64,000 nt of DNA from positions 656,640-720,639 of the forward strand of contig NZ_ML142848.1 of NCBI RefSeq assembly GCF_004138485.1. Reading direction: 5' to 3'. The notes beneath the pieces are model-generated. The model saw only the letters and a program-made list of their open reading frames with translations, was not told the DNA's origin and did not search any database. The stretch is from Peristeroidobacter soli (GTDB lineage: Bacteria; Pseudomonadota; Gammaproteobacteria; Steroidobacterales; Steroidobacteraceae). Positions within the stretch are counted from its first letter, which is position 1. The number at the start of each line of letters is the position of its first letter. The position numbers were made by a program, and so were the translations under genes. This document shows positions 6,237 to 27,561 of this stretch, piece by piece.

Positions 6237-6307
6237 CGGCTGGTTTGATGCGGCCGCCGGCAAAAAGGTCGCAAAAAAGTGGTTGTAGCCGGGCAACGTC
6301 CTTCCGC

Positions 6308-6313
6308 TATAAT
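6308..6313 (+). promoter_or_regulatory. Candidate -10 box of the tRNA-Leu gene
   Basis: A perfect TATAAT lies 21 bp before the mature tRNA 5' end. The best upstream -35 candidate, TTGTAG at 6283-6288, is 19 bp away and matches the consensus poorly. Placement before a stable RNA gene is the main support. Confidence 0.5.
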
Positions 6314-6334
6314 CGCCGCCCTTCGCTTCCCGTA

Positions 6335-6421
6335 GCCGGCGTGGCGGAACTGGTAGACGCAGCGGACTCAAAATCCGCCGCCCTTAAAAGCGTGTGGGTT
6401 CGATTCCCTCCGCCGGCACCA
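6335..6421 (+). tRNA. tRNA-Leu(CAA)
   Basis: An 87-nt class II tRNA. The acceptor GCCGGCG pairs with CGCCGGC, the D-loop contains TGGTAGACGC, the anticodon loop is CTCAAAA (anticodon CAA), a long variable arm follows, and the T-arm is GGGTTCGATTCCC. The discriminator is A and CCA is encoded. All stems pair. The integrase remnants and accessory genes start right after its 3' end, which fits use as an attachment site. Confidence 0.97.
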
Positions 6422-6580
6422 TCTTCTTCGTCCGAGAGAGCGGCCAGTCAGGTCCTCTCATGCCCGTTGCGGCCTAGTTTCTAGACGTTTTTGCTCCACC
6501 ACGTTCTTCGGTTGTCCAAGGACCGCCTAGCACGTACGGGTAACTCTAGGACTCGCCGCCCAACTAGGGGTAACCGGACG

Positions 6581-6860
6581 ATGCTGACCGAAGTCGAGAT
6601 TCGCGCGGCGAAAGCCGTTGAAGTTGCTCGACGGCGGCGGGCTGTATTTGCTTGTTACCCCGGTGGTGGGCAGTGGTGGCGGCTCAAGTATCGGGCACGA
6701 CGGGAAGGAGCGCGGGATTTCGCTTGGGGTGTAGCCGGATGTCTCGCTGAAGCGAGCAAGGATCTGCCGCGACGATGCTCGGCGCATGGAACGCCGACCA
6801 AGATGGGTTGGCTGCGGCGCGCGAACAGCACCTCAAGGCATTTCAGTGGCACGTCGAAAA
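6581..6860 (+). pseudogene. Degraded DUF4102-type integrase, N-terminal fragment
   Basis: Starts with MLTEVEIRAAK, the typical first residues of P4/DUF4102-type tyrosine recombinases, 160 bp after the tRNA-Leu end. The homology then changes frame. One frame gives DGGGLYLLVTP, another GGQWWRLKYR, and a third GKERGISLGV followed, across a one-base gap, by PDVSLKRAR. All are in the normal order of the family's N-terminal domain. At least three frame changes make it a dead gene. No catalytic domain follows on this strand. It marks a former island or prophage insertion at the tRNA. Confidence 0.7.
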
Positions 6861-6944
6861 GGAACTCGCCCAGCAAGGCGAGAGACTTTACGAGGTGAAA
6901 GGGAAAAAGATGTTGGTTCGTGGCCCTCTTCCGAATTAGGAACC

Positions 6945-7083
6945 GCGCGTAGACGCTCGCGATATATAGCCCAGGCCCATCGCCGTGCCCCAGATCCAGC
7001 GAGGTCGCTACTCGCGCCTCTCGCTCACTGAAGCCTTCATCGCGATAAGCCTGCATGCGTTCGGCTGCGGAGGCGTAGCGGGC
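6945..7083 (-). pseudogene. Possible integrase C-terminal remnant
   Basis: This minus-strand reading contains SEREARVATSLDLGHGDG and then YIASVYAR, resembling the LGH...Y box at the catalytic end of tyrosine recombinases. It is short, on the strand opposite to the neighbouring integrase fragment, and runs into unrelated sequence. It may be part of a second element. I hold it loosely. Confidence 0.3.
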
Positions 7084-7819
7084 ACTGTGACGCTGAGTGT
7101 CGGCGCGATGGCAGACATTTCAATAAACACCAATCGCCAGTTCCAGATCCGGACTGACTGAGACATCGGCGCGCGTCAAGAGGCGTCGGTTGCAGACGCG
7201 GTGTCACTTGCCCGGCGTCGGTGAAATGTGTTGCGGTGACAACAGGTTGCGGCAGTGGGCCGTGTGCGTCACCTTCTCGGCTTCGCCCAAGACAGTGACG
7301 CACGCGTGGAGGAACACTGCGTTTGGCGCAGCTTTATATGTTTACGTCGTTAGAAGACTGGTTGCCGCAGGATGCGACCGCTGGACAGCGGATTGGAGAA
7401 GAATGGCGTCAGCGCCCGAGTGATGAGTCAGGACCACAGCCTGGTTGGCTGCGTAGCTCTGCTTGGTCTAAAGCTGCTTTTGGGGTTGCCTGCAAATGCA
7501 GGCGGGGTTACGACGATGCCCTCGTCGTCAGGGAATAATCGCCGAGGTCGAGAATGCGCCAGCGGCTAGCGATCTGCAAACTATCATCGTGAGTCCGCGC
7601 GCCCTACGTCTGCCGAGGTCCACCGAGAACTGCAAACCAAGCAGTGATCGACCAAGCTCGCCAGACTTTGCGCTGGCGCTGCGCTCGGCTGCCGACGCGT
7701 CGGACCACATCGCGACGCTCTATCCCTTGGAGAACCTTCTTGGACGATGCGGCGGAATCCAATGCTCAAATTGCGAGCCAACCGCGCATGCTGAACTGGG
7801 CACGTTTGTTTTTTGACAC
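7084..7819. other. Gene-poor decayed stretch
   Basis: Both strands carry only short open frames with no recognisable motif, signal peptide or ribosome site. The stretch lies inside the tRNA-Leu-adjacent element and looks like eroded mobile DNA. I see no RNA gene or repeat in it. Confidence 0.5.
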
Positions 7820-8446
7820 CTACTTAGCAGGTAGATAGCTTATCGGACATCGAGCTACCACCCGCCCCGTCTCATCTGTTACGTTCCGCGGCATCAAGCA
7901 TGTCGCCAACCTTCCTTCGGAAATTTCCGAGCGATGCGAGGCCGCCTTACATAGATCCCGCGCCTCTCGCATCCGACCTGGAGGAGCAGCGATATGGACG
8001 GCGAGCGCTGGGAAGGACTCAACGAGTTGCCGAACGAGAGGAATTTGATCGCTGTCGGCGGTGACTAAGATGGCTCTATCCATCACTCCGAGATGCGCGT
8101 CGGTCAGGACGCGCACAGCAAATGCCACGTCCGTCTGCTTCTCTTCATAGAAGTCGCAGTATCGCGCGAACCCGTTACAGTATTTCTTGCTCTTGAGAAA
8201 CCGAGATTCGACTACCGCGACTCGCTGCGCGACAAGGGCGGTGATGTACTCACGATGGCGCTGGTACTTGTCGGCGTTCCATACCATTGGCGCCGTGAAA
8301 TACGTCACGCCAACCAATGTGTCCTGTTTCTCAAGAAACGATGCAGCGAGCACCCGGAGGTTGAGCCACTTGAGCTCCGGGCGCTGTAACTTGCTGATGG
8401 CATGGTACAAATTGAATCCGTCGACATAGAACGAAACTTTGGCCAT
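7820..8446 (-). CDS. NYN (PIN-like) domain putative ribonuclease
   Basis: A 208-residue protein beginning MAKVSFYVDGFNLYHAI, the standard start of NYN-domain nucleases. Candidate metal-binding acids are D9, D106 (EEKQTDVAFAV), D131 and D133 (ILVTADSDQIPLVR), all where the PIN/NYN fold needs them, so it looks intact. The family cleaves RNA; several members sit in defence or toxin loci, but a defence role here is only inference from its place in a mobile region. It lies downstream of a frameshifted XRE regulator and a 77-residue ORF, with a conserved two-hairpin element 30-120 bp upstream of its start. Confidence 0.8.
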   Translation of the reverse strand: MAKVSFYVDGFNLYHAISKLQRPELKWLNLRVLAASFLEKQDTLVGVTYFTAPMVWNADKYQRHREYITALVAQRVAVVESRFLKSKKYCNGFARYCDFYEEKQTDVAFAVRVLTDAHLGVMDRAILVTADSDQIPLVRQLVESFPALAVHIAAPPGRMREARDLCKAASHRSEISEGRLATCLMPRNVTDETGRVVARCPISYLPAK

Positions 8447-8472
8447 GGTCTAGCAATTTCCTTTTCGATCCT

Positions 8473-8553
8473 TATAATCTTCGCATCTCCCCGCCGGGCT
8501 GCGGACGGCGGAAAAAGGGGCTAAACCTTCGGGTTGGCCCCTTTCTCTTTTCT
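8473..8553. ncRNA. Two-hairpin structured RNA element, copy 1 (C4-like candidate)
   Basis: On the plus strand a TATAAT (8473-8478) is followed by a hairpin CCGCCG/CGGCGG (8491-8511) and then by a strong stem GGGGCTAAACC / GGTTGGCCCC closed by a TTCG loop (8517-8541) and a T-rich tract. This could be a ~70-nt small RNA with its own terminator. On the minus strand the same block is the leader of the NYN gene. A second copy at 27464-27545 keeps both stems and the -10-like box. The setting recalls the C4 antisense RNAs of P1-like phages, which regulate antirepressor genes. The assignment and the transcribed strand are inference. Confidence 0.45.
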
Positions 8554-8620
8554 GGGGTTCTGCTACTCCGATGCGAGCGGCCCCGACAGAACGTCGGAGC
8601 CGCTTGGTCATTGACCGCCT

Positions 8621-8854
8621 TCAATGCGGCCCTTTGCCCTCGATCTCCGCTTTTTCATCCTTGAGTAAGCTCGCGTCGATACGCGCGCTCGCCGCGGAGA
8701 CAAACGCGTGGACGACCGCCACGGCATCAGCTAAGTCAGCGTCACATTCGTTGTCGTACTCAGCCGCGCATTGAATGCATGCGAGTACCGCTGATGCCTT
8801 CTGAAGCTCTCTGACTTCCGCGCGAATGCGCTCAGCGTCTACCGTGGCCGTCAT
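8621..8854 (-). CDS. Small hypothetical protein (77 aa)
   Basis: An Ala- and acidic-rich, probably helical protein (MTATVDAERIRAEVRELQKA) with two cysteines near the middle. I do not recognise a family. Its ATG overlaps, as ATGA, the stop of the restored XRE reading frame (LTAYFSAQGGAP then stop). This is typical coupling and supports it as a real second gene of a XRE-small ORF pair. It could be an antitoxin partner or a regulator accessory; nothing in the sequence decides. Confidence 0.45.
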   Translation of the reverse strand: MTATVDAERIRAEVRELQKASAVLACIQCAAEYDNECDADLADAVAVVHAFVSAASARIDASLLKDEKAEIEGKGPH

Positions 8855-9323
8855 GGAGCACCGCCTTGCGCGGAGAAGTACGCGGTGAGCGCTTCGAGCA
8901 CCTCTTCCACGAGTGTCCGAGCCGACCTAATGACCGAGGCAATTGCACCTGGGTAACGCTCGATGTTTTCGGGTTACACCAGCAGGGTTCAACCCCGTAT
9001 CGAGTTGGCTGCCGAGGCTTAGGCGGCGCCGGTTGCTCTAGGTCGCGGAAGTCATCATCGCGGGAGAGATACTCCAGCAGAGGCAACGGATCATCGCCGA
9101 CCCGGCGAACGATCCACATGAACTCCCTAACCTCCACCAGCCGCGCACCGCTCTCAATCTTCGAAATATACGACCGGCACCGGTCCAGCCGATCCGCGAG
9201 CCGCGTTTGGCTCAGACCCGCCCACCTTCTGGCCCTGGCTATGATCACCCCGACACGCTTCGCCGGGTCGGCCCGTTTCTCAGCTTTGGCGCCGCCGTCC
9301 GCGCCATCGGCGAATGACCTCAT
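8852..9323 (-). pseudogene. XRE-family HTH regulator, frameshifted
   Basis: Residues about 24-85 form a Cro/C1-type helix-turn-helix (VGVIIARARRWAGLSQTRLA, then SYISKIESGARLVEVREF). After about residue 100 the original frame turns basic and unlike the family. A shifted frame reads SARTLVEEVLEALTAYFSAQ and stops with an ATGA overlap on the next ORF, so the true C-terminus lies in that frame. The frame change lies near 8970-8985. Unless it is a base-call error, the gene is broken. A scrap of the same C-terminal coding sequence recurs at 27562-27578. In phage-like elements this type of gene is the operon's own repressor. Confidence 0.6.
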
Positions 9324-27230: not shown

Positions 27231-27431
27231 TCAGCTCGCGCCCGGCGATCGCATGAACTCGCAATAGGGCGCTTGCACCCGAGCGCGCTTCAAACAAAAA
27301 CACCGGCCGGTCTTCACGCCGTAAATCGCGGCGAGGTCACGGTCCAAAATAACTCGACAACCTCGCACGAGCAGGATCGACGAGCTGATCTGCTCGATCG
27401 GCACGAGCGCGGTTGCTTCGTTCTTGGTCAT
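27231..27431 (-). pseudogene. ORF6N-domain protein, truncated
   Basis: Residues 10-45 (PIEQISSSILLVRGCRVILD, RDLAAIYGVKTG) match the ORF6N domain of phage antirepressor/KilA-N-type DNA-binding proteins. The family normally continues with a block on the pattern NQAVKRNxxRFPxxFxFxL and 100-200 more residues. Here it turns into an unrelated short tail and stops at 66 residues, so it is a fragment. Its ATG is 33 bp from the second copy of the two-hairpin element, in the same relative position as the NYN gene to copy 1. Confidence 0.65.
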
Positions 27432-27463
27432 TCGCTGCTCCTGGACTTCTCAAAGCGCACTCG

Positions 27464-27545
27464 TACAATTTCAGCATCTCCCCGCCGGTCGGCGGACGGC
27501 GAAAAAAGGAGGCTAAACCCTACGGTTGGCCCCTTTCTTTTTTCT
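27464..27545. ncRNA. Two-hairpin structured RNA element, copy 2 (C4-like candidate)
   Basis: A diverged copy of the element at 8473-8553 in the same orientation. It has TACAAT (27464-27469), stem CGCCG/CGGCG (27483-27501), then GGCTAAACC / GGTTGGCCCC (27511-27533) with a CTAC loop, then a T-rich tract. The stems are kept while loops change (TTCG to CTAC, GGCTGCGGA to GTCGGCGGA), which is what selection on RNA structure would leave. On the minus strand it is the leader of the ORF6N gene. ORF6N/antirepressor genes are known partners of phage C4 antisense RNA. Confidence 0.45.
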
Positions 27546-27561
27546 GCGGTTGTGCTACGGC

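What the first reader, a model, noticed from the sequence alone, without database searches (positions are those of the whole stretch)
8473..8553. Two-hairpin RNA element present twice, beside two different accessory genes: C4-like antisense RNA candidate
Seen: copies at 8473-8553 and 27464-27545 share about 80 bp, keep both stems while loops change, keep a -10-like box and a T-tract, and lie 30-120 bp from the start of a minus-strand gene (NYN nuclease; ORF6N fragment). Established: phage P1/P7 C4 antisense RNA sits with antirepressor genes, and ORF6N domains occur in such proteins. Inference: this is a C4-type or analogous regulatory RNA, and its link to a NYN nuclease would be new.
Basis: partly seen in the sequence, partly recalled or inferred. 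Interest (0 to 1): 0.75.

Follow-up and report, generated by a model that had tools for sequence, protein, structure and literature searches.

The report
RNA partner of NYN defence nuclease
The repeated two-hairpin element is probably a small RNA gene; similar elements sit beside relatives of the same predicted RNA-cutting defence gene in distant bacteria and virus contigs, which suggests that this gene works with an RNA partner, perhaps an RNA antidote.

Summary
In detail: 8483-8554 and 27474-27546 are two copies of one ~70-nt element (88% over 85 bp) with a -10-like box, two hairpins and a T-tract. It is not C4: 17.2 bits (cut-off 45), out of register. Of the two neighbours, the NYN gene (7820-8446, PADLOC HEC-09) is the recurrent one. 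Starting from NYN relatives, a two-hairpin-plus-T-tract element lies within 250 nt upstream in 38 of 48 dereplicated genes not found through the RNA, against 8 of 102 other genes in these loci (P 1.5e-18); in loci fetched after the descriptor was fixed, 7 of 13 (P 1.7e-4). It occurs in Proteobacteria, Streptomyces, Thermus and viral contigs, in both orientations, and as arrays in a few loci. HEC-02B genes: 0 of 28; ORF6N genes: 1 of 6. The RNA also occurs without NYN (window copy 2, G702, G687). The element types share architecture; common descent of all is not shown. [quoted passage not shown] copy 2 is an orphan. That the RNA inhibits NYN is inferred.

The parts
8473..8478 (+). -10-like box TATAAT of RNA copy 1 (weak -35)
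   Evidence: read; kept in relatives; not called by the promoter scan
8483..8554 (+). RNA copy 1: AUCUCC leader, hairpin 1 (8491-8511), hairpin 2/terminator (8514-8544), T-tract
   Evidence: (R1 100.3 bits; a model row)
7820..8446 (-). NYN nuclease gene, HEC-09 family, 208 aa, divergent from the RNA, starts 37 nt from it
   Evidence: Pfam NYN 1.8e-8; PADLOC HEC-09 5.2e-46; AF2 pLDDT 97.2, Foldseek best 2qip; acidic residues invariant in 39
27442..27469 (+). promoter-like site of RNA copy 2 (TGGACT-16-TACAAT)
27474..27546 (+). RNA copy 2, orphan (no NYN beside it), hairpin 1 27482-27502, then hairpin 2 and T-tract
   Evidence: R1 86.9 bits; a model row
27231..27431 (-). ORF6N gene fragment, 66 aa; its first 43 aa match the 179-aa ORF6N of G115; not a recurrent partner
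8621..8854 (-). small ORF, similar to a small ORF beside the G115 and G106 copies
8832..9323 (-). HTH gene upstream; belongs to the same element by position only (the HTH protein of L061 did not match it)
   Evidence: Pfam HTH_31 1.9e-7
6949..7155 (-). integrase remnant between tRNA-Leu and NYN
   Evidence: tblastn of the L061 integrase, 61% over 69 aa
6335..6421 (+). tRNA-Leu(CAA), possible integration site (inference; no second copy of its 3' end in the window)

Best explanation
The element is the RNA gene of a two-component module: a ~60-75-nt RNA (short C-rich leader, hairpin 1, hairpin 2 that doubles as terminator) and the HEC-09-type NYN ribonuclease encoded beside it. Shown by comparison: the pairing of such elements with these NYN genes is specific and widespread, in both orientations; two subfamilies covary; promoter scores before hairpin 1 exceed shuffles; some loci hold arrays; the nuclease keeps its acidic residues. 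Inferred: the RNA is transcribed, acts in trans and holds the nuclease inactive (possibly being trimmed by it), as in type III toxin-antitoxin systems, and phage infection or loss of the locus frees the nuclease. In the window, copy 1 with NYN is a full module in an integrase-remnant region near tRNA-Leu; copy 2 and the third copy are orphan RNAs.
For: 38 of 48 dereplicated NYN relatives not found through the RNA have the element upstream (27 co-directional, 11 divergent) against 8 of 102 other genes of the loci, P 1.5e-18, and 11 of 260 two-mer shuffles. Loci fetched after the descriptor was fixed: 7 of 13, P 1.7e-4. Gene-specific: HEC-02B 0 of 28, ORF6N 1 of 6. Breadth: Streptomyces L150 and L159, Thermus L151, Microbacterium L152, Alphaproteobacteria L013 and L014, viral contigs (21 co-directional, 1 divergent, 6 without). 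Both orientations within one model: R2 was built from 7 divergent and 2 co-directional elements and also finds co-directional L086 (28.4 bits) and L129 (24.2 bits), not in it. Arrays before NYN in L098, L100, L101 and L102, by reading the sequence. Promoter score before hairpin 1: median 8.6 against 4.9 shuffled, P 5e-7, n 29. Covariation in two subfamilies. Orphan RNAs without NYN, as expected of an antidote.
Against: No expression, toxicity or binding data. The descriptor was written after seeing most of the loci; on later ones it passed 7 of 13. Of 48, 10 failed it; of 7 further plasmid NYN genes 1 passed, the ColE1-type enterobacterial and the Cupriavidus/Marinobacter/P. syringae ones showing by eye mainly one terminator hairpin. 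The element types are not linked by one sequence model: R1 gave E up to 0.1 in 4 of 54 NYN loci, and R2 matched neither the window copies nor most co-directional elements. Most copies are single units. The three genomes newly hit by R2 had no NYN in the loci, for G702 and G687 not within about 14 kb. Five of 11 R1 copies have no NYN beside them. With the whole RNA, pairing to the own NYN start is slightly stronger than to others (-32.9 against -30.4 kcal/mol, mean rank 17.6 of 41, not tested; some regions overlap the RNA's end). No pseudoknot was sought.
Confidence: 0.58

Rival explanations
1. A cis-acting leader: the hairpins only terminate or attenuate transcription into NYN, or end neighbouring transcripts on both strands.
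For: Hairpin 2 with T-tract is terminator-like; in 27 of 48 loci it lies before NYN in the gene's direction, median 21 nt from the start. Several plasmid NYN genes show by eye only the terminator.
Against: 11 of 48 are divergent, hairpin 1 covaries, arrays exist, a promoter-like site tends to precede hairpin 1, orphan copies persist.
Confidence: 0.17
2. The RNA is an activating guide or scaffold that loads NYN for cutting phage RNA, rather than an inhibitor.
For: Units within one array differ in hairpin sequence but keep the fold; a CRISPR-associated NYN is suggested to trim crRNA intermediates (PMC11346440, abstract).
Against: No spacer-like stretch noticed; the leader is short and alike in the second subfamily; orphan RNAs without NYN fit an antidote better.
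Confidence: 0.15
3. A cis antisense RNA (type I or C4-like) that blocks translation of the neighbouring gene.
For: In the window it is divergent and close to the neighbour's start; if NYN is transcribed from beyond the RNA its leader would be fully complementary. Whole-RNA pairing energy slightly favours the own NYN start (not tested).
Against: No cognate preference of the RNA leaders, mean rank 20.7 of 41, P 0.68; 27 of 48 are co-directional; C4 not matched.
Confidence: 0.06
4. A mobile DNA element or recombination site that marks exchange points of accessory genes.
For: In Steroidobacter the gene beside it changes (NYN, ORF6N, HigA-like) within partly shared flanks; in G702 it lies between an HmaA end and an HEC-02B gene.
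Against: Preference for HEC-09-type NYN; fold, T-tract and promoter-like site are kept as in an RNA gene.
Confidence: 0.04

Closest known systems
Type III toxin-antitoxin systems (ToxIN, CptIN, TenpIN)
   Same: RNA gene, sometimes tandem units, promoter-like site, terminator and then a ribonuclease-type gene.
   Different: Nuclease is NYN (PIN-like, recalled), not ToxN-like; mostly a single unit; 11 of 48 are divergent; no pseudoknot shown.
HEC-09 (PADLOC candidate defence gene)
   Same: The window NYN matches at 5.2e-46; all 39 members of A7 match.
   Different: The PADLOC model is a protein model; an RNA partner is not part of it as far as seen here.
C4 antisense RNA (RF01695)
   Same: Small two-hairpin RNA of mobile elements (recalled).
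   Different: No family match; other strand relative to the neighbour.
CRISPR-associated NYN ribonuclease
   Same: NYN nuclease acting on RNA in a defence system (PMC11346440, abstract).
   Different: No CRISPR genes were noticed here (not searched for); short structured RNA instead of crRNA.

Membership tests
C4 antisense RNA | Matches RF01695 at or above 45 bits | tested here: not met
   17.2 bits, out of register, copy 1; copy 2 none at E up to 10
C4 antisense RNA | Complementary to the start region of the controlled gene (recalled) | tested here: inconclusive
   leaders show no cognate preference over 41 loci, P 0.68; whole-RNA energy slightly favours the own gene, untested
int-alpA RNA | Matches RF02996 at 35.8 bits | tested here: not met
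   16.4 bits
Type III toxin-antitoxin | Noncoding RNA gene next to an endoribonuclease gene | tested here: inconclusive
   element beside 38 of 48 NYN relatives; NYN fold and acidic residues; transcription and RNase activity untested
Type III toxin-antitoxin | Tandem RNA repeats, terminator, toxin gene in one direction (PMC5086642, passages) | tested here: inconclusive
   arrays in L098, L100-L102; single units in most; window copy 1 is divergent
Type III toxin-antitoxin | Toxin of the ToxN, CptN or TenpN families | tested here: not met
   Pfam gives NYN only; best fold 2qip
Type III toxin-antitoxin | RNA folds as a pseudoknot and binds and inhibits the toxin | not tested
   no pseudoknot search made; binding needs biochemistry
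HEC-09 | Matches PDLC04163 | tested here: met
   5.2e-46; 39 of 39 members of A7; 14 of the 52 counted relatives are not in A7
Any Rfam 15 family | Gathering-score match on the element | tested here: not met
   none in the window or on the elements of 20 related loci

The most novel reading that the evidence does not exclude
HEC-09 NYN nucleases form a new family of RNA-neutralised toxin-defence modules, unrelated in fold to ToxN, spread over at least three bacterial phyla and viral contigs, in which structurally conserved but sequence-variable RNA units hold the nuclease; orphan RNA copies such as window copy 2 act as anti-addiction antidotes against incoming modules.
Probability: 0.38. Interest if true: 0.85.

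Novelty: new variant of a known kind. Interest (0 to 1): 0.7.

Why it matters
HEC-09 is a candidate defence gene that the library used here models as a protein alone. If it needs, or is restrained by, a partner RNA, tests of the protein alone could give misleading toxicity or no protection, and gene finders would need the RNA. It would also add an unrelated nuclease fold to the few protein-RNA toxin-antitoxin families, and it makes the mechanism of HEC-09 directly testable.

Tried and rejected
C4 antisense RNA: rejected on Rfam score and register, with the leader pairing test against it. int-alpA and BjrC68: 16.4 and 15.3 bits, far under cut-off. Exact-pattern and DNA-similarity searches: viral contigs pattern 0, plasmids 0 with the L014 element, phages 0 with copy 1.

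R1 hits under about 30 bits in Steroidobacteraceae (most of the places in the 55 of 217 genomes at E up to 0.1): the 12 that I read looked like ordinary gene terminators, and I used none.

ORF6N as a general partner: 1 of 6 (6 of 21 plasmid records with a match were fetched). HEC-02B as partner: 0 of 28 (28 of 29 places, one partial match left out; start taken as the codon nearest the domain, so the true 5' end of the long G702 gene was not tested), although the G702 RNA lies near an HEC-02B gene. A first MAFFT alignment of 15 co-directional elements (A5) did not align the stems and was not used; its L083 row had a mistyped 5' end that occurs in no locus.

Counts before the final one: 28 of 37 NYN loci, not dereplicated, against 25 of 263 genes; 29 of 38 against 5 of 77. 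Rows dropped before the final count: of 100 NYN loci offered, 30 failed the automatic NYN recognition, 70 remained, 52 after dereplication at 70% identity and a need for 150 nt upstream; 7 of the 30 were examined later with annotated starts (1 of 7). Of 320 plasmid and 3 phage records with an NYN match, 15 and 1 were fetched. A relaxed descriptor gave 45 of 52 against 21 of 102. A mechanical count of adjacent hairpins gave 6 for L098, 5 for L102, L085 and L136, but 1 for L100, where the greedy routine failed; so the arrays rest on reading the sequence. A VIA-align comparison was not available.

Full report
What was claimed. Two copies of a two-hairpin element beside two different minus-strand genes, read as a C4-type antisense RNA.

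The observation. Both copies are real. They align at 88% over 85 bp. Each has a -10-like box (TATAAT 8473-8478; TACAAT 27464-27469), an unpaired AUCUCC leader, hairpin 1 (CCGCCG...CGGCGG, outermost pair lost in copy 2), an A-rich linker, hairpin 2 (GGGGCUAAACC....GGUUGGCCCC in copy 1, with a bulged A) and a T-tract. On the other strand the U-G pair of hairpin 2 becomes C-A, which favours the + strand as the RNA strand, though single-sequence folding does not separate the strands. The genome, 9.37 Mb, is of the genus of Steroidobacter agaridevorans (G115) and Peristeroidobacter agariperforans (G106), told from contig lengths. Model R1, built from 7 sequences, gives a third degenerate copy at C1:1356082. 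A DNA search matched 10 of 200 genomes of the family: four, all of the genus, with full-length copies (own, G115, G106, G129) and six with short matches only. Two Alphaproteobacteria contigs, L013 and L014, have it too.

Not C4. Rfam at gathering thresholds finds only a tRNA in the window. C4 scores 17.2 bits (cut-off 45) with positions 23-64 laid on the terminator hairpin, and nothing for copy 2 at E up to 10.

The neighbour that recurs. In both Alphaproteobacteria contigs, in G048 (L049) and in G115 (L060), the gene divergent from the RNA is again an NYN gene. It belongs to PADLOC HEC-09. Of 11 R1 copies (L090 was found through the protein), 6 have NYN beside them (window copy 1, L060, L013, L014, L049, L090); window copy 2, L061, L062, L064 and L048 do not.

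From the protein to the RNA. NYN relatives were collected from plasmids and phages (16 of 323 records fetched), genomes and viral contigs. Upstream of many lies a compact element: a C-rich leader such as AUCAUCC or AACCCC, hairpin 1, a short linker, hairpin 2 and a T-tract. I then wrote a mechanical descriptor, having seen these. It found the element in 29 of 38 dereplicated genes against 5 of 77 control genes, and on a wider set in 41 of 52 against 8 of 102. Leaving out the four loci found through the RNA: 38 of 48 (27 co-directional, 11 divergent; P 1.5e-18), and 11 of 260 two-mer shuffles. In loci fetched only after the descriptor was fixed it passed 7 of 13 (P 1.7e-4 against the same controls), the fairest rate I have. 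Seven plasmid NYN genes missed by the automatic recognition gave 1 of 7; the failures are small enterobacterial plasmids and Cupriavidus, Marinobacter and P. syringae plasmids, with by eye mainly one terminator hairpin. So the association is strong but not universal.

Specificity. HEC-02B genes 0 of 28; ORF6N genes on plasmids 1 of 6. Hence the ORF6N beside copy 2 is most simply incidental: in G115 and G106, which share long flanks with each other and shorter blocks with window copy 1, the gene next to the RNA is ORF6N or a HigA-like antitoxin, in window copy 1 NYN.

The RNA. A second subfamily (AACCCC-GCYGG...; nine sequences from Thermus, Streptomyces, Proteobacteria and others) has 11 of 18 pairs changed on both sides, 0 of 500 shuffles as high; these elements had been picked for having hairpins, so the share of paired cells is biased. 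Upstream of hairpin 1, promoter scores exceed shuffles (median 8.6 against 4.9, n 29, P 5e-7; 21 of 29 above 6 against 33% of shuffles). L100, L101 (near-identical to each other) and L102 hold, by my reading, three units in tandem and L098 two or three, with a terminator after the last unit, directly before NYN; L100 and L101 show a TTGACA...GATAAT site before the first. G445 has two more tandem copies about 490 bp from its NYN-side copy. None of the elements in 20 loci matches an Rfam family. A caution: R1 and R2 do not recognise each other's members, nor most AUCAUCC-type elements, so one origin for all of them is not shown; what they share is layout, leader type and gene.

The reverse search. 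Model R2 hit 8 of 398 Pseudomonadota genomes at E up to 0.001, under strict filters. Five are next to an HEC-09 gene (G531, G445, G537, whose elements are in the model; G558, G524, not in it). Three are not: G702 (70 bits; between an HmaA end and an HEC-02B gene), G687 (68 bits; about 20 nt after what reads as a tRNA 3' end) and G490 (36 bits, probably a terminator). In L186 the order is HmaA, RNA, NYN, HmaB. RNA without NYN therefore exists; it fits an antidote that outlives its toxin but also any RNA with another role.

The nuclease. D9, N12, E102, K103, D106, D131 and D133 are invariant in 39 sequences. AlphaFold2 gives pLDDT 97.2; the best solved relative is 2qip, VPA0982. A CRISPR-associated NYN is an Mn-dependent RNase in vitro, with a suggested role in crRNA trimming (PMC11346440, abstract).

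Mechanism. Two orientations, arrays and orphan copies speak for a trans-acting RNA rather than a leader. RNA leaders show no cognate pairing with NYN start regions (mean rank 20.7 of 41, P 0.68); the whole RNA shows a slight, untested preference (rank 17.6). The layout of the co-directional loci is that described for type III systems (one promoter, RNA repeats, terminator, toxin; PMC5086642, passages). I hold inhibition of NYN by the RNA as most likely (0.58, lowered slightly from a first 0.6 after counting the later loci apart; the novel case from 0.40 to 0.38 and interest from 0.72 to 0.70 for the same reason), with leader-only and guide or scaffold roles next.

Known or new. HEC-09 appears in one paper of the library, there as a correlate of susceptibility (PMC12447246, one passage); PMC12988326 (two passages) says that several HECs, HEC-06 named, have antiviral activity. 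'NYN' with 'type III toxin-antitoxin' gave 0 papers, with 'RNA antitoxin' 1 (a type II review, listing only), and 'NYN domain' with 'toxin-antitoxin' and 'small RNA' 8 (listing; of one of them the abstract was read). Preprints and most subscription papers are not held, so an RNA partner may have been described elsewhere.

Noticed in passing
window 6335-9323: tRNA-Leu, integrase remnant, NYN, RNA, small ORF and HTH gene look like a decayed integrative element; G115 has tRNA, NYN, RNA and small ORF in the same order.
   Followed up: partly
L182 (G702:C3:3000-17000), RNA at 6302-6363: Orphan RNA (70 bits) with a TTGACA/CATAAT site before it, between an HmaA end and an HEC-02B ATPase gene; no NYN in the 14 kb held.
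   Followed up: partly
L183 (G687:C24), RNA at 7047-7108: Orphan RNA (68 bits) about 20 nt after what reads as the 3' end of a tRNA gene; possibly made as a tRNA trailer.
   Followed up: no
L048 2372-2695 (G000 C1, near the third copy): Probable addiction-module antidote gene (dnstrm_HI1420) about 400 bp from the degenerate third RNA copy.
   Followed up: no
L015 4034-4105: Sub-threshold SymR-like match (38.6 bits, cut-off 61) near the G106 copy.
   Followed up: no
L013 2448-2525: A SAM-alpha riboswitch lies about 70 nt downstream of the Methylovirgula copy of the RNA.
   Followed up: no
L067-L069: Small plasmids of E. coli and Klebsiella carry NYN relatives with one strong terminator-like hairpin upstream, perhaps a reduced form of the RNA; all three fail the descriptor.
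   Followed up: partly
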